DNA from: Spiroplasma endosymbiont of Danaus chrysippus
GTDB taxonomy: Bacteria > Bacillota_I > Bacilli_A > Mycoplasmatales > VBWQ01
DNA length: 55,681 nt
NCBI RefSeq assembly: GCF_902809815.1
Contig: NZ_CADDIL010000003.1
Location: 210,099-265,779 of the forward strand
Reading direction: 5' to 3'
Under the pieces are notes generated by a model that saw only the letters and a program-made list of their open reading frames with translations, was not told the DNA's origin and did not search any database. Shown here one piece after another: positions 19,509-40,030 of the stretch (positions within the stretch are counted from its first letter, which is position 1; each line of letters opens with the position of its first letter). Position numbers and translations under genes: made by a program.

Positions 19509-19514
19509 TATAAT
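19509..19514 (+). promoter_or_regulatory. -10 element of the left small RNA
   Basis: TATAAT ends 5 nt before the first hairpin of the putative RNA, the spacing expected for a transcript that starts at the hairpin. The following ATAAAAATACTTA is nearly the same at the right copy. Confidence 0.6.
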
Positions 19515-19519
19515 AAAAA

Positions 19520-19606
19520 TACTTACTTAGTTAAGGGTAAGTAAATATTCATTGCGGTTGGCACCTAACAGTGAATAGGAGTTACCATTATTGGTAACTC
19601 TTTTAT
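19520..19606 (+). ncRNA. Putative structured small RNA, left copy
   Basis: In order: 5' hairpin TACTTAC / GTAAGTA (19520-19543); the core GGTTGGCACCTAA (19556-19568) held in a loop by the flanking TATTCATTG / CAGTGAATA pairing; terminator hairpin GAGTTACCA / TGGTAACTC (19579-19600) followed by TTTTATTTT. The same order, spacing and core recur at 36865, while stem bases differ with compensating changes, which supports RNA structure. No reading frame of note is present. It has its own -10 box. Function unknown; a trans-acting regulator, an antisense RNA or a packaging-related RNA are all possible. Confidence 0.6.
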
Positions 19607-29706: not shown

Positions 29707-31081
29707 GAGGCTTTTTAGTAATCTGTGTTTCTTTGTTTTACAAAGTACTAGTTCAGATTAATTCTGTCTTCAAATTTTATCATAAAATGAGCAATTGCTG
29801 TATTTCAATTTTGAATAGGCAATGTTCATTTTTTTGTGATATTTTCAATTGCTAAGTAAAAAATTTTAAAAACTGCCATATCATTAGGAAAAACTTTTTT
29901 ATTTCTAATAACTTTTCGTAATTGGCTATTAACAGATTCAATAGCATTTGTAGTATAAATTACCCTTTTAATTTCTGCTGGATAACTAATAAAAACCATT
30001 AAATTTTCTCAATTTTTATATCAAGATTTAGCAATTTGTGGATATTGTTTATTTCATTTACTTTCAAATGATTCTAAAGCTTGCATTGCTTGTTCTTCAC
30101 TACATGCTGTATAAATTGGCTTTAAATCGATAACTAGAGACTTTCGATGTTTGTATGAAACATATTTTAAGCTATTTCTAATTTGATGAACTATGCATAA
30201 TTGATGTTCAGTTTTAGGATAAACTGATTGTATTGCCTCTGACATGCCTGTTAAATTATCACTACAAGCAATAAGAATATCATTTAAGCCTCGATTTTTC
30301 ATTTCTGTAAAATTATTTAATCAGAATTTAGCACCTTCATTTTCACTAATTCATAAACCTAAAACATCTTTTTTACCTTCTAAATCAACTCCTAAAGCTA
30401 TATAAACTGATTTGTTAATAATACGTTTATCCTGACGTACTTTAACTACGATACAATCAAAATAAATGATTGGATAAACACTATCTAATGGACGATTTTG
30501 CCATGCTTTGACATCATCAATGACATCATCAGTAATTTGACTAATTACGCTTTCGCTAATATCTGCGCCATCATATAACTCTTGCAACTGCATTCTAATA
30601 TCTGATAAAGTCATACCTTTTGCATATAGTGAAAGAACTTGTTGATCAAAACCATCAAATCTTCTCTGTCTTTTTGTGATTATTACTGGTTCAAAATTAC
30701 TATTGCGATCTCTTGGTACATCAATTTCAATTTTACCTTGTTGAGTTATTAATTTTTTTGATGTTGTACCATTACGAACATTGTCATTATTACTGCGTTG
30801 ATTTCTTTCGTGTCCTAAATAATTTTGCATCTCAGAATTCAACATTTTTTCTACCAATCGTTTAGTTAATTCTTTATATAAGCCTCCCTCTTTAAAAACT
30901 GTTGTTAAATCCTCAGTATTTTCTAATAATAAATCTACTGCTTTTGATATTGGATCATTGTTATTAAGATTATCTTTTTTAGCCATCTGTAACTCACTCT
31001 TTCTAGATATATAAATTATATTTACTAGAATTAATTAAACATAGTTATTTTTGTAAGTCACACAGATTACTAAACATTCCC
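29707..31081 (-). mobile_element. IS256-family insertion sequence, copy 2
   Basis: It is the full 1375-bp element, starting GAGGCTTTTTAGTAATC and ending with the complement of GGGAATGTTTAGTAATC. The flanking 8-mers AAAATTAT and TTTAAAAA do not match, unlike the 8-bp duplications of copies 3 and 4. Confidence 0.95.
29748..30986 (-). CDS. IS256-family transposase
   Basis: Complete 412-residue Mutator-type transposase with Asp177, Asp243 and Glu350 (TTNAIESVN) as the DDE triad. The frame needs TGA as Trp at several sites, so it could not be expressed in a standard-code host. ATG at 30986. Confidence 0.95.
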
Positions 31082-32132: not shown

Positions 32133-35090
32133 ATGATAATGAACAACGCAGTAAAAATTCAATTAATGAAACAAGCACATCTAGCATTAAAGCAAACTCA
32201 ACAATTAATAAAGAGATGTAGTTATTGAAAAATATTTCCTATTATTAATAATGGAGCAATTCCTTTAACTGAAACTGGTTATAAACCAATTAATAGTAAA
32301 ATAAGTGATTTTGGTCAATATGAATTAATATTAACTGGTACTACTCCAGTTGTATGTATTTGAAAAAATAGTACAAAAATATATCAAAAAAATAAAGGTA
32401 AAATTGATGAAATAACAAATAAAATAAAAGAACAAGATGAATTTTATACAAAACAATATAAAATTGGTGATTATTGAAATGCTTATTTAATTGATGATAC
32501 AAGTGGTGTTGATTTTAGTAATTTACCAAATAATCAAATATTTAAAACAGTACAAACTAAAAGACAATATACTTTAGTTATGTTTGAAGAACATATTACA
32601 ATTGATGATTATTTACAATTTTTTTGTGTATTTAATGATGAAAATGAAAATATTGGTGGTAATAGTGGTAAAAATCAAGATAGACAATTATTATATATTT
32701 CAAATGTAACAAATTATTATAGTCCTTATAATGGTGCATTTAGTATGCAAGTATTAACTTTTAGTAGTTTAAATGATAGAGTAGTTGCAAGTGGTCAAAA
32801 TACACTTGATTTTGTACAATATGCAAGCCCGGGTAGTGGTTATGCTTTTCCTACTATTCAACAAGGAAAAGTAACTTTAAATCGTATTTTAATGAAAGAT
32901 ATAGGTGTAAGATATTCTCATAGACAAAGTTATGGATTAGAATTATTATCAAGTTGTTATTATTATGGAAGACCAATAATTCAAGGTCAAGAACCTATTC
33001 AACAAAATAATGAAGAAATATTTGAAAGTAAAGTATTTGCTTCAAGAAGATTATTTATTGCTGGTAATAATGAAAAATCTACAACTGAAGTTAAAAATAA
33101 TGGTGGTTTACTTGCTGGAATAAATGATAAAATAACTACAAGTAGTCATCCAGAAACTACATTTTATAATATTATGGACGCAAAACCAACTGGATTTACT
33201 CATTATGATACATGACAAAAATTTTTAGAAGCAAGAAAATTTGATATGTTAGCACAAAAAGATTTTCAAGGAATATTAACATGTAATAAAGAATTAGCAA
33301 TTAAAAGTAATGGTGATGCTATTGGTAAAGCAAAATTCTTTTGAGATAGTGAATGAAATATAAATAATTTACAAGGTGAATATAATGTTGATATGTCAAG
33401 TAATTTTAAATATAAAGACCCAGATACTGGATTAGTTATTGGTTCACCAACTGTTGATTATAAAAAAATAAGTCAAAAATATATGTCTGCTATATTAAAT
33501 TTTAATAGTGTAGTATTTAGTTCATTAATTCAAATGCCTTATGATAGTGTACAATGATTACCATTTGCTTTAAGTTCAATTCCATTAGTAGGTAAATTAT
33601 TAAATGCTTTAACATTAGGTATTCCAGTAGGATTTATTATTACTCAAAATTCTCAACAATATAAAAATATGCCATTTTTTAATGGTTTTATGTCAGCATT
33701 TTTTGCTTCAAATTTATCAAGTATTATTGGTAATAATGATACAAATTGATTTATACCTTTAAATATATTTAGTAATTCAAGTGAATTTGCATTAGGTAAA
33801 ATGTTAGGTTCACATGTTAGTACAACTGCTATGACTATGAAATTAAGTGATAGAGTAAATGTTTATCCATGAGACCCTACTACTGGTAAAAAGTTAGAAG
33901 TAAAAGAACAAATAAGTACAGTTGATTTATCACAAAAGAAAAATAATAAAGTTTATATTTTAGCAGAAGATACTGAATTTTTAGATATTGCTTCACCATT
34001 AACTAATGAAGATACTGAATGTCAATGAAATCCAACAGCAAATGGAGTTATTGATGGTTCAAATTATGCTTATATTATTGATACAATTGTAACTCAATCA
34101 TTACATCAAGGTGAAGAAAGACATACATTTTATAGTGATAATCCTTTTACTTATCAAGGTGATTATAATGAAATATCAGTTGCTCAGTTTAGATATAATA
34201 ATATGGCTTATTTAACTGGTAATGCTTTTAATTGAACAACTTTGTATAAATTAAATCATGATGAATATGAAGAAAGTGAAGAAACTACATTTTCATATCC
34301 AGCAAAAATATTACCACCAAGTCCACAAAATATAGCAAAATCAATAGTTATTATTCCAGATTTAAAAATTGAAATGACAACAAATGATGTATCATTAATT
34401 GATACAAGTTCGGTATCATATAAACCTAATTTTAATGTTTGACTTAATAATAATTCAAATAAATTAGGTAATTATGAAGTTGATTTAAAATCATTATTAG
34501 ACCCAACTTTATTAATTAATACTTTTAATGATTTAAAAAGATATTATAAATCAATAACTATTTATTACGATTATGTTATTGACACAAAGGAAGAAATAAA
34601 AAATTCTCATGATAATAAATTAGTAGTATATTCTACAAACGAAACCTTTAGACCGGCAAAAAGTGAAAATATAAGTAAAACTATTGATTTAAAAGATTTA
34701 ATATTAAGTAATAATAATCCAACAATTAATGAATATAAACAAGAATTTTTACATCCAAATGATAATAATGATGAAAATGGATTAGCATATATTTATACTT
34801 ATAGTAATAATAATTCAATGCCATATAATTTAACTGGTTATGAATTTAATCTATCAGTACATTTTGGAAGTTTGGGAAGAACAGTAAATAAAAATTATGA
34901 AACAAATTCATGTATTGCGATGAGTATTGTTGATAATAAACATCTAAAATGAAATTTTTATTTACAAGCTAATTTAGGTAAAATTGAATGTATAAATGAT
35001 TGAAAAAACAATTTAATATATACACATGGAAAAAGATATATCAGTAATATTAAAACTAATATTTATAAAATAATTTTAAATTCAAGATAA
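32133..35090 (+). CDS. Large phage structural protein, possible tail protein
   Basis: The 985-residue protein has AGGAG before ATG 32133, inside the portal-like gene in another frame (89-nt overlap). It is mostly beta-rich and Asn/Tyr-rich. A central stretch near residues 460-540 is hydrophobic (LIQMPYDSVQWLPFALSSIP, LLNALTLGIPVGFII, FFNGFMSAFFASNL), resembling membrane-active loops in tail-knob proteins of short-tailed phages. The late part has repeated beta motifs and may bind the cell surface. No family is recognised; size and position after the portal suggest a tail or distal structural protein. Confidence 0.65.
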
Positions 35091-35193: not shown

Positions 35194-36568
35194 GGGAATG
35201 TTTAGTAATCTGTGTGACTTACAAAAATAACTATGTTTAATTAATTCTAGTAAATATAATTTATATATCTAGAAAGAGTGAGTTACAGATGGCTAAAAAA
35301 GATAATCTTAATAACAATGATCCAATATCAAAAGCAGTAGATTTATTATTAGAAAATACTGAGGATTTAACAACAGTTTTTAAAGAGGGAGGCTTATATA
35401 AAGAATTAACTAAACGATTGGTAGAAAAAATGTTGAATTCTGAGATGCAAAATTATTTAGGACACGAAAGAAATCAACGCAGTAATAATGACAATGTTCG
35501 TAATGGTACAACATCAAAAAAATTAATAACTCAACAAGGTAAAATTGAAATTGATGTACCAAGAGATCGTAATAGTAATTTTGAACCAGTAATAATCACA
35601 AAAAGACAGAGAAGATTTGATGGTTTTGATCAACAAGTTCTTTCACTATATGCAAAAGGTATGACTTTATCAGATATTAGAATGCAGTTGCAAGAGTTAT
35701 ATGATGGCGCAGATATTAGCGAAAGCGTAATTAGTCAAATTACTGATGATGTCATTGATGATGTCAAAGCATGGCAAAATCGTCCATTAGATAGTGTTTA
35801 TCCAATCATTTATTTTGATTGTATCGTAGTTAAAGTACGTCAGGATAAACGTATTATTAACAAATCAGTTTATATAGCTTTAGGAGTTGATTTAGAAGGT
35901 AAAAAAGATGTTTTAGGTTTATGAATTAGTGAAAATGAAGGTGCTAAATTCTGATTAAATAATTTTACAGAAATGAAAAATCGAGGCTTAAATGATATTC
36001 TTATTGCTTGTAGTGATAATTTAACAGGCATGTCAGAGGCAATACAATCAGTTTATCCTAAAACTGAACATCAATTATGCATAGTTCATCAAATTAGAAA
36101 TAGCTTAAAATATGTTTCATACAAACATCGAAAGTCTCTAGTTATCGATTTAAAGCCAATTTATACAGCATGTAGTGAAGAACAAGCAATGCAAGCTTTA
36201 GAATCATTTGAAAGTAAATGAAATAAACAATATCCACAAATTGCTAAATCTTGATATAAAAATTGAGAAAATTTAATGGTTTTTATTAGTTATCCAGCAG
36301 AAATTAAAAGGGTAATTTATACTACAAATGCTATTGAATCTGTTAATAGCCAATTACGAAAAGTTATTAGAAATAAAAAAGTTTTTCCTAATGATATGGC
36401 AGTTTTTAAAATTTTTTACTTAGCAATTGAAAATATCACAAAAAAATGAACATTGCCTATTCAAAATTGAAATACAGCAATTGCTCATTTTATGATAAAA
36501 TTTGAAGACAGAATTAATCTGAACTAGTACTTTGTAAAACAAAGAAACACAGATTACTAAAAAGCCTC
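35194..36568 (+). mobile_element. IS256-family insertion sequence, copy 3
   Basis: The 1375-bp element is flanked by an 8-bp target duplication GAAAAAAA (35186-35193 and 36569-36576). Ends GGGAATGTTTAGTAATCTG and GAGGCTTTTTAGTAATCTG share the core TTTAGTAATCTGTGT. Confidence 0.95.
35289..36527 (+). CDS. IS256-family transposase
   Basis: Complete 412-residue transposase identical in the visible parts to the copy at 29748. The DDE triad is intact. Confidence 0.95.
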
Positions 36569-36852
36569 GAAAAAAAACATGATTAATAGTTATTAGTTTT
36601 ATTTATTTAATTATATCAATTTATTATTTAGGAACATTAATCTATTGAGATAAATTTTATGATAATGTAAGTATTATTACTGATGATGTGACTAAATATT
36701 TTAGTAGTGGAAGAATGTTTTTAATTAAAATGTTATCATTGTGATTTGTTGTTTCTATTGCTTTTTTTATAGGTTGAATAATTTTAAAAGTTACAAAAAC
36801 TAAAATAAAACCTAAACAAAATAATATTTCCCCACAATCTTAAATATTAATG

Positions 36853-36858
36853 TATAAT
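36853..36858 (+). promoter_or_regulatory. -10 element of the right small RNA
   Basis: TATAAT ends 6 nt before the first hairpin of the putative RNA, matching the spacing of the left copy. Confidence 0.6.
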
Positions 36859-36864
36859 ATAAAA

Positions 36865-36969
36865 ATACTTATCAAGTAGTTATAAAAAAAAGATAAGTAT
36901 ATAATTTCACTGTATATGATTTAGGTTGGCACCTAATTAAAAAGTTACCAATTAAGGTAACTTTTTTTA
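36865..36969 (+). ncRNA. Putative structured small RNA, right copy
   Basis: Order as in the left copy: 5' hairpin ATACTTATC / GATAAGTAT (36865-36900), core GGTTGGCACCTAA (36924-36936) which here also forms TTAGGT-TGGC-ACCTAA, and a terminator hairpin AAGTTACC / GGTAACTT (36942-36963) followed by a T run. Stem bases differ from the left copy but stay paired. It ends 20 nt from the convergent gene at 36990 and may also stop that transcript only weakly. Function unknown. Confidence 0.6.
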
Positions 36970-36989: not shown

Positions 36990-38450
36990 TTATACTCCGG
37001 AAATAGCACAAACACCAGCAGTAACAGTTGCAACGGCAGCAGCAACAGTTCCAATTACGGGTATAACAGAACTAACACCAGCAATAACAGTTGCAACATT
37101 TACACAATTTACATTTGATGTATTTTCTAAATTTGCAACTCTTTTATCTACTTCATTAACTTGTTGTTTTATTAAATCAAAACTTGATTTTAATCCTTGT
37201 ACATTTTTATTTAATTCATCTAATTTTCAATCATGTTCTATTAAAGTACTAACATAACTTCAATCTCTAATATAACCTTTAATTATTTCTTTTTCTCTAT
37301 TTTTTGCAGTTCATTTTTGACTATCAGTATAAGTTTTTAAATGATTGATTTTTGTAGGTAAATTTTTATTGTAATCATTTATATGTGCTATTCATTGTTT
37401 AACTTTTTCATCATTTGCTATATAATTTGATATTTCATTAAGTTTAGTTTGAGTTATATAAGTAAATTTAGGTTTTAAAATACCATGAGAGTATTTTTCG
37501 CTACTTTCTTTAACTTTTATTTTTGTTGAAAAACATTGACAAAAGTGAGAATAACTTTCCTTGTTTACAATTTCAACATCATTAATATCTAAATTTGGAT
37601 ATTTTTGTTTAATTGCATTTTTAATATTATTATTAATTAACCCTAAATTAATCGTATTAGTTGAATCTCAAATAGGAAAATCTCTTTGTAAATTATCAAG
37701 ATATACATTTGAATAATAATGAGTATCAGATGTTCTAATACTTACATCATCGTTTCAAATTTCTCATCCAGTAGCTTTCATTAAGACAATAATCAATATA
37801 CGTTCTTTTTTAGAACTATTAATAAATTTATCAGCAATACGTCAAAAATTATCATATATAGTTTCTCCTAAGTTAATAATGTCATAATAATCGATTCTTG
37901 AATCCATTCAAACACCATTAAAACATTTATTTTTAAATTTTTCTGCAAAATTTTTCCTATTATTATCTGATTTTAATTTAATTATTTCTTCTCATCAGTT
38001 AGGTTTAAATGAGCAATAAAGATTATTTTTTCAAAAATTATATTCAATCTCATTTCCATGATTTAAACCTCTTTTGTTTCTAATTTTTTCATGCTGTGCT
38101 TTTAAAAATTGATGATGTTCTTCTTGTATTTCTTGAAGTTGTTGTTGAGCAATTTGTGGGTCTCTACTTCAACCTTGTGTTTTTAAGAAATTTTCATAAA
38201 AATGGTCAGTTTCTAAATTTTTTACTGATTGAATATTTTGGTCATTTTGTAATTGTATTAAATTTGTTTGGTTATTTAATAAAGTTAATTCTTGATTTTC
38301 TATTGATTCTAAACTGGTATTGTTGTTAGCTCAATCTTTAATATTTTGATTATCAATTGACTTAGCATTAATACCTTGTGTTTTATCATTAAATAATGGT
38401 GCAGATAATACTCACATTTTAAATCAATAACTTGGATTAAAATATTTCAT
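36990..38450 (-). CDS. Phage protein with coiled coil and hydrophobic C-terminal tail
   Basis: The 486-residue protein starts at ATG 38450. It begins with an aromatic MKYFNPSYWFKMW, has Gln/Glu-rich helices (QIAQQQLQEIQEEHHQF), a mixed middle, a coiled coil near residues 405-445 (NVQGLKSSFDLIKQQVNEVDK) and ends in a 40-residue Gly/Ala/Val-rich hydrophobic segment (ATVIAGVSSVIPVIGTVAAA). A coiled coil followed by a glycine-zipper-like membrane segment recalls tail-needle, ejection or pore-forming proteins. No family is recognised. It is the only large minus-strand gene on the right side of the phage block. Confidence 0.65.
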
Positions 38451-38639: not shown

Positions 38640-40030
38640 TTTAATTTGGGAATGTTTAGTAATCTGTGTGACTTACAAAAATAACTATGTTTAATTAATT
38701 CTAGTAAATATAATTTATATATCTAGAAAGAGTGAGTTACAGATGGCTAAAAAAGATAATCTTAATAACAATGATCCAATATCAAAAGCAGTAGATTTAT
38801 TATTAGAAAATACTGAGGATTTAACAACAGTTTTTAAAGAGGGAGGCTTATATAAAGAATTAACTAAACGATTGGTAGAAAAAATGTTGAATTCTGAGAT
38901 GCAAAATTATTTAGGACACGAAAGAAATCAACGCAGTAATAATGACAATGTTCGTAATGGTACAACATCAAAAAAATTAATAACTCAACAAGGTAAAATT
39001 GAAATTGATGTACCAAGAGATCGCAATAGTAATTTTGAACCAGTAATAATCACAAAAAGACAGAGAAGATTTGATGGTTTTGATCAACAAGTTCTTTCAC
39101 TATATGCAAAAGGTATGACTTTATCAGATATTAGAATGCAGTTGCAAGAGTTATATCATGGCGCAGATATTAGCGAAAGCGTAATTAGTCAAATTACTGA
39201 TGATGTCATTGATGATGTCAAAGCATGGCAAAATCGTCCATTAGATAGTGTTTATCCAATCATTTATTTTGATTGTATCGTAGTTAAAGTACGTCAGGAT
39301 AAACGTATTATTAACAAATCAGTTTATATAGCTTTAGGAGTTGATTTAGAAGGTAAAAAAGATGTTTTAGGTTTATGAATTAGTGAAAATGAAGGTGCTA
39401 AATTCTGATTAAATAATTTTACAGAAATGAAAAATCGAGGCTTAAATGATATTCTTATTGCTTGTAGTGATAATTTAACAGGCATGTCAGAGGCAATACA
39501 ATCAGTTTATCCTAAAACTGAACATCAATTATGCATAGTTCATCAAATTAGAAATAGCTTAAAATATGTTTCATACAAACATCGAAAGTCTCTAGTTATC
39601 GATTTAAAGCCAATTTATACAGCATGTAGTGAAGAACAAGCAATGCAAGCTTTAGAATCATTTGAAAGTAAATGAAATAAACAATATCCACAAATTGCTA
39701 AATCTTGATATAAAAATTGAGAAAATTTAATGGTTTTTATTAGTTATCCAGCAGAAATTAAAAGGGTAATTTATACTACAAATGCTATTGAATCTGTTAA
39801 TAGCCAATTACGAAAAGTTATTAGAAATAAAAAAGTTTTTCCTAATGATATGGCAGTTTTTAAAATTTTTTACTTAGCAATTGAAAATATCACAAAAAAA
39901 TGAACATTGCCTATTCAAAATTGAAATACAGCAATTGCTCATTTTATGATAAAATTTGAAGACAGAATTAATCTGAACTAGTACTTTGTAAAACAAAGAA
40001 ACACAGATTACTAAAAAGCCTCTTTAATTT
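38640..40030 (+). mobile_element. IS256-family insertion sequence, copy 4, with target duplication
   Basis: The element itself is 38648-40022 (1375 bp), flanked by the 8-bp duplication TTTAATTT at 38640-38647 and 40023-40030. It sits between the 486-residue gene and the small-gene cluster, so it breaks no recognised gene. Confidence 0.95.
38743..39981 (+). CDS. IS256-family transposase
   Basis: Complete 412-residue transposase. It differs from the other copies by His in place of Asp in the ELYDGAD segment (residue 140); the DDE triad is unchanged. Confidence 0.95.

What the first reader, a model, noticed from the sequence alone, without database searches (positions are those of the whole stretch)
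36853..36969. Right copy of the same RNA with compensating stem changes
The core and order are kept while the 5' stem is ATACTTATC/GATAAGTAT and the terminator stem AAGTTACC/GGTAACTT; differences from the left copy keep base pairing. Two copies in one phage-like element suggest paralogous regulators or a cis-acting mark at two sites. The GGT-TGGC-ACC core could itself fold or pair with a target.
Basis: partly seen in the sequence, partly recalled or inferred. Interest (0 to 1): 0.75.

Follow-up and report, generated by a model that had tools for sequence, protein, structure and literature searches.

The report
Prophage small-RNA cassette in Spiroplasma
A roughly 100-nucleotide RNA gene, with its own promoter, sits between the last late gene of a Spiroplasma prophage and that gene's terminator; many related prophages carry versions with a constant end and a variable start, and others lack it cleanly, which suggests a swappable phage regulatory RNA whose target is still unknown.

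Summary
At 36853-36969 there is an extended -10 promoter, a 5' hairpin, the hairpin UUAGGU-UGGC-ACCUAA and a terminator. The left copy (19509-19605) has the same order, with paired differences. The element is a family confined, as far as searched, to six congeners of the Spiroplasma ixodetis clade: 11 exact-core copies in this genome, 11 in five congeners, none in 53 other genomes. Copies in recognisable MaM-2019a-like prophages lie at the 3' end of the late operon. A 29-nt module is invariant while the 5' hairpin comes in several types. Six prophages have empty sites lacking the promoter-hairpin-core segment; the best pair, in one genome, differs by 69 bp with 99% identity over 3 kb downstream. 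So it behaves as an RNA-only 'moron' cassette between stop codon and terminator. The T-box-like UGGC core is excluded as a tRNA sensor (loops UAGC and AAGC occur; no downstream gene). Likeliest role, inferred only: a prophage trans-acting RNA resembling EHEC prophage anti-sRNAs in layout; no target was found.

The parts
36851..36858 (+). extended -10 promoter TGTATAAT of the right copy
   Evidence: TGTATAAT kept in most phage copies
36840..36933 (+). segment absent from empty sites (promoter + 5' hairpin + core); ends ambiguous by 2 bp because CT is shared at both ends
   Evidence: empty sites CCCCACAATCTAATTAAAAAG in L183-L187 and L189; paired alignment L070/L187
36865..36900 (+). 5' hairpin ATACTTATC...GATAAGTAT
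   Evidence: covariation
36921..36936 (+). core hairpin UUAGGU-UGGC-ACCUAA
   Evidence: loop variants UAGC, AAGC
36921..36949 (+). 29-nt invariant module TTAGGTTGGCACCTAATTAAAAAGTTACC
   Evidence: all phage copies with the exact core
36940..36965 (+). intrinsic terminator, shared with the late operon
   Evidence: present at empty sites and at L238 without the RNA
36580..36844 (+). end of the last late gene: small membrane ORF ending ..QNNISPQS*, truncated by IS256
36990..38450 (-). convergent 486-aa ORF, a variable neighbour of the RNA
32133..35090 (+). 985-aa late gene used as anchor for the census
19509..19514 (+). -10 box of the left copy
19519..19544 (+). left copy 5' hairpin
19546..19577 (+). 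left copy core hairpin UAUUCAUUG-C-GGU-UGGC-ACC-UAA-CAGUGAAUA
19579..19605 (+). left copy terminator GAGTTACC/GGTAACTC

Best explanation
The right copy is a member of a family of short noncoding RNA genes carried by MaM-2019a-like prophages of the Spiroplasma ixodetis clade. Read from the sequence: a host-type extended -10 promoter starts an RNA of about 80-116 nt with a type-specific 5' hairpin, a spacer, an almost invariant hairpin (UUAGGU-NNGC-ACCUAA, usually UGGC), and the late operon's intrinsic terminator. Shown by comparison: the promoter-to-core segment is a 69-~110 bp unit that is precisely present or absent between the stop codon of the last late gene and that terminator, i.e. an RNA-only moron. 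Inferred: because it has a host-type promoter it is expressed in the lysogen, independently of late transcription, and acts in trans; the constant 3' module serves stability or partner binding, and the variable 5' hairpin and spacer set the target (mRNA or host RNA). The left copy is a diverged chromosomal relative, not part of the prophage.
For: Family of 22 exact-core copies in six congeners with 0 reversed-control hits. Position at the late/early convergent junction in many prophages and the census of 28 late-operon ends: RNA in 11, empty in 5, a different RNA body in 4, IS-interrupted in 7, terminator only in 1. Empty and occupied sites with the same flanks. Constant module versus several 5' hairpin types, each folding. 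Compensating changes in the 5' stem. Loop variants keep the stem. No ORF or start codon sets up a peptide in the RNA (from the sequence). The terminator exists without the RNA in a divergent phage (L238), which favours insertion over loss.
Against: No expression data. No target found. The core stem itself shows no compensating changes, and two copies (L127, L123) weaken it. Invariance of 29 nt among phages could partly reflect recombination. The hairpins without the terminator are only modestly better than shuffles in types A and B. Insertion and deletion cannot be told apart with certainty. Many carrier prophages are degraded by IS elements.
Confidence: 0.55

Rival explanations
1. A promoter-plus-stem-loop boundary element like the PeSLs of T4-type phages: the block is kept because it provides homology for module exchange and expression of new cargo, and the RNA itself has no function.
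For: Flanks on both sides are unrelated between phages while the block is kept; unrelated upstream ORFs share the last codons NNISPQS; cassette presence is polymorphic. PeSLs are described as promoter early stem loops that mediate gene shuffling between T4-like phages (PMC4503421).
Against: The promoter points into a terminator, not into cargo. The 5' hairpin changes with compensation and the 29-nt module extends beyond promoter and terminator needs. Empty sites keep the same terminator, so the RNA part is not needed as a boundary.
Confidence: 0.22
2. A cis element: short transcription into the terminator insulates the convergent late and early operons (interference or antisense control of the facing gene).
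For: Sits between convergent operons with a symmetric bidirectional terminator.
Against: Empty sites have the terminator alone and appear otherwise alike; a conserved internal hairpin is unexplained; the left copy has no facing phage operon.
Confidence: 0.15
3. A T-box-like tRNA sensor: GGU-UGGC-ACC resembles the T-box bulge UGGNACC, and GUUACC of the terminator could pair with GGU/UAA to form an antiterminator.
For: Core resembles UGGNACC; alternative pairing GGU/ACC and UAA/UUA is possible in both copies.
Against: Loops UAGC and AAGC in intact members break UGGN; GTTACC stays in empty sites and in L238 without any core; no gene follows the terminator in the same direction in most copies; no Rfam T-box match even at relaxed threshold.
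Confidence: 0.03
4. Antisense of the core against a competing plectrovirus: GGUUGGCACC is perfectly complementary to GGTGCCAACC in a GC-rich hairpin of SpV1-like filamentous phages in the same genomes.
For: 10-nt match in L230-L232, L215, L216, L222, on the sense strand just after a Zot-like gene in L230.
Against: Roughly 0.1 chance expectation by my own estimate for so GC-rich a 10-mer; core loop variants would not pair; both sites are inside stems; the extended flanks do not pair.
Confidence: 0.05

Closest known systems
EHEC lambdoid prophage anti-sRNAs (AsxR, AgvB; EcOnc01-03), Tree et al. 2014, PMC4104026
   Same: Small RNAs at a conserved position in many prophages of one genome, in a cargo (moron) site next to a convergent ORF, with highly conserved 3' part and variable 5' end.
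   Different: Those are 51-60 nt, Hfq-bound, in convergent pairs after PR'. Here the RNA is ~80-116 nt, single, uses the late operon's terminator, and the six genomes have no Hfq. No sequence relation was shown.
Phage morons (Juhala et al. 2000; cited in PMC7067206 and PMC4104026)
   Same: Autonomously promoted unit inserted between genes, absent from close relatives.
   Different: Encodes no protein and borrows the operon's terminator.
PeSL cassettes of T4-type phages (Arbiol 2010, Comeau 2014; cited in PMC4503421)
   Same: Short promoter + stem-loop unit at variable junctions, polymorphic presence.
   Different: Has a conserved internal RNA hairpin and variable structured 5' part; promoter does not drive a following gene. 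The original papers were not readable here.
T-box riboswitch (RF00230; PMC7583486)
   Same: UGGN-ACC-like core close to a terminator.
   Different: No specifier stem I, no downstream gene, UGGN not conserved, no Rfam match.

Membership tests
Moron (phage cargo unit) | own promoter and terminator | tested here: met
   TGTATAAT and terminator at nearly all copies, by sequence only; terminator shared with the late operon
Moron (phage cargo unit) | inserted between genes adjacent in close relatives | tested here: met
   occupied versus empty sites in the same genome, 69 bp
Moron (phage cargo unit) | expressed in the lysogen | not testable with these tools
   no RNA-seq
Prophage anti-sRNA (AsxR/AgvB type) | conserved 3' part with variable 5' end at a fixed prophage site | tested here: met
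Prophage anti-sRNA (AsxR/AgvB type) | Hfq-dependent | tested here: not met
   no Hfq (PF17209) in six genomes; control genomes ring
Prophage anti-sRNA (AsxR/AgvB type) | antagonises a host sRNA | not testable with these tools
   host sRNAs unknown; left copy is only a candidate
PeSL | early promoter followed by stem-loop terminator at gene-exchange junctions | tested here: inconclusive
   layout similar; promoter class and role untested
T-box riboswitch | UGGN complementary to tRNA NCCA end | tested here: not met
   UAGC and AAGC loops
T-box riboswitch | leader of a downstream gene; Rfam model match | tested here: not met

The most novel reading that the evidence does not exclude
A swappable phage RNA cassette: one fixed slot between stop codon and terminator in a phage group, into which alternative promoter-RNA bodies (several 5' types plus core-less alternatives such as L260/L254) are exchanged, with a host chromosomal relative as the partner or source, working as Hfq-independent trans-acting RNA in a wall-less bacterium.
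Probability: 0.3. Interest if true: 0.75.

Novelty: new variant of a known kind. Interest (0 to 1): 0.5.

Why it matters
No Rfam family, phage record or plasmid matched this RNA, and a search of the held papers turned up nothing on small RNAs of Spiroplasma phages. Within one genus there are occupied and empty sites in closely related prophages, which makes a clean natural experiment for asking what an RNA-only phage cargo does. If it acts in trans, it would extend the prophage anti-sRNA idea to bacteria without Hfq.

Tried and rejected
T-box sensor: rejected on loop variants and on GTTACC being kept without the core. Known RNA family: none at gathering threshold over the whole window and only chance-level hits at E up to 10 around the two copies. 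Homologues in phages (right copy, one search left copy) and plasmids (right copy only): only terminator or AT-rich matches; MaM-2019a itself has only a similar terminator. Exact 18-mer in IMG/VR: chance hits; capsid search of IMG/VR found no relatives. -35-like role of CCCCACAATC: rejected, its distance to the -10 box varies by 3 nt and it is coding sequence. Type-specific superinfection exclusion: unlikely, several copies of one type coexist in one genome. Pairing with translation starts: not beyond shuffles for the 5' parts; the core alone was slightly better than shuffles but not consistent across upstream ORFs. IS200/605-type mini-element: considered because of hairpins near both ends without repeats, but copies in prophages sit at one homologous slot. 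The R1 search hits of 29-40 bits in other genera were taken as terminator-only (many match on both strands) and discounted without reading each one.

Full report
What is there. The right copy (36853-36969) reads: TG-TATAAT, a few bases, a 9-bp hairpin ATACTTATC/GATAAGTAT, a short spacer, the hairpin TTAGGT-TGGC-ACCTAA, and the terminator AAAAGTTACC-AATTAA-GGTAACTTTT. The left copy (19509-19605) has the same order. Rfam has no such family.

Where it comes from. The window is Spiroplasma: reading TGA as tryptophan opens the phage genes, and two congeners with the element are named records, S. ixodetis SHM (G005) and Spiroplasma sp. AdecLV25b (G002). The exact 13-nt core occurs 11 times in the window's genome and 1-4 times in each of five congeners, never in 53 other genomes, with zero hits for the reversed control. 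Further members have loop changes: TTAGGT-TAGC-ACCTAA, TTAGGT-AAGC-ACCTAA, TTAGGC-TAGC-ACCTAA, and a degraded TTAGAT-TCGT-ACTTAA. A covariance model of the 3' module gives a gap between these (65-77 bits), the three left-type copies (about 52 bits; this type was in the model) and weaker hits; the strongest of those, when read, were empty sites or bare terminators.

Anatomy of the family. In the phage copies with the exact core the 29 nt TTAGGTTGGCACCTAATTAAAAAGTTACC are identical and only the neighbouring base, the terminator loop and tail vary. The 5' part falls into several types (CTTAC-TTAT-GTAAG; CTTATC-..-GATAAG; CTTACC-..-GGTAAG; TTCTTACTT-..-AAGTAAGAA) with spacers of different length. 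Across hand-anchored type representatives four of eight pairs of this stem show double changes (81 of 88 cells pair against 76.5 in shuffles, P 0.008). The core stem does not vary enough to test.

Genomic slot. In recognisable prophages the RNA follows TerL-portal-985-aa protein-small ORF and faces a convergent, variable ORF followed in most by RuvC and RecT/ERF genes. The last late ORFs are unrelated in many cases but many share the end ..NNISPQS. Using the C-terminus of the 985-aa protein as anchor, 28 late-operon ends were read: 11 with the RNA, 5 empty, 4 with a different RNA body, 7 interrupted by IS or unreadable before the slot, and 1 divergent phage with the GTTACC/GGTAAC terminator directly after the stop codon. 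The alternatives are informative: L260, L261 and L244 keep the promoter block but have another hairpin (TTAATCTAT/ATAGATTAA) and no core; L254 has a CTTAC hairpin and another 3' part. A sixth empty site, L187, was found through the model search.

Empty sites. CCCCACAATC|TTAAAT...GGCACC|TAATTAAAAAG in occupied copies corresponds to CACAATCTAATTAAAAAG in empty ones. In genome G004 the occupied L070 and the empty L187 are 99.2% identical over 3 kb downstream and 85.7% upstream, and differ by a precise 69-bp segment. Only CT is shared at both ends, so slippage between long repeats is not the explanation. Whether this is gain or loss is not proven; the terminator without RNA in the divergent L238 favours gain.

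The left copy. It is not in the prophage. In G003 the same RNA lies between a ThsB-like TIR gene (Pfam ThsB_TIR, E 4e-13) and an unrelated gene, near ileS, and none of the reference phage proteins used for annotation matched there; G005 has the same locus; G001 keeps both flanks with the RNA replaced. In the window an IS element and then the prophage begin 0.5-2 kb further right. It is therefore a chromosomal relative.

How it may work. Shown by sequence: a promoter-like site, hairpins, a terminator, conservation, presence/absence. Inferred: transcription in the lysogen, action in trans. The nearest functional parallel read here is the group of anti-sRNAs of EHEC lambdoid prophages, which sit at the moron insertion site and have highly conserved 3' regions and variable 5' ends (PMC4104026). 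The six Spiroplasma genomes have no Hfq, so the mechanism could not be the same in detail. A search for targets found none. A 10-nt perfect complement of the core lies in a GC-rich hairpin next to a Zot-like gene of plectrovirus-type elements in the same genomes (the Zot/Rep naming is by my reading of the proteins, not by a family search); I judge this near chance level.

Why not a T-box. The core looks like UGGNACC, and in both copies GGU/UAA could pair with UUACC of the terminator. But members with UAGC and AAGC loops exist, the GTTACC terminator is kept where the core is missing, and no gene follows in sense in most copies.

Verdict. Function remains inferred.

Noticed in passing
L057 (G003:C1, about 0.1-1.0 kb upstream of the left-type RNA); fragments in L055 (G005): A TIR protein of the Thoeris ThsB type (Pfam PF08937, E 4e-13) lies directly upstream of the chromosomal RNA; it is intact in G003, broken in G005 and missing in the window, where an IS3-type element sits.
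   Followed up: partly
L230-L232 (G000:C7), L215, L222 (G001), L216 (G003): GC-rich hairpin clusters in an AT-rich genome, in L230 next to Zot-like and Rep-like genes (plectrovirus type), contain GGTGCCAACC, the exact complement of the RNA core.
   Followed up: partly
L193-L196 (G005, G003, G000, G001): A further RNA-like unit: promoter, hairpin CTTACC-TAGTAGGGTTATAGAGAAA-GGTAA. In three genomes the 3' arm runs straight into the terminator tail (GGTAACTTTTTTT), so the hairpin itself would be the terminator; in G003 a separate terminator follows.
   Followed up: partly
L260, L261, L244, L254 (G004): Different RNA bodies occupy the same slot, mostly behind the same promoter block; no core hairpin.
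   Followed up: partly
window 29748-30986, 35289-36527, 38743-39981: Three near-identical IS256-type transposase copies, one splitting the portal gene and two bracketing the RNA region; the prophage is defective.
   Followed up: no
L139 (G005:C1:681504-682562): The ileS gene of G005 appears broken (two TAG and two TAA inside the matched part, besides TGA).
   Followed up: no
L069, L070, L073: Behind the RNA lies a gp437-like structural gene on the opposite strand (in L070 followed by the capsid genes), unlike the window's gene order: an inversion or different phage lineage with the RNA at the junction.
   Followed up: no
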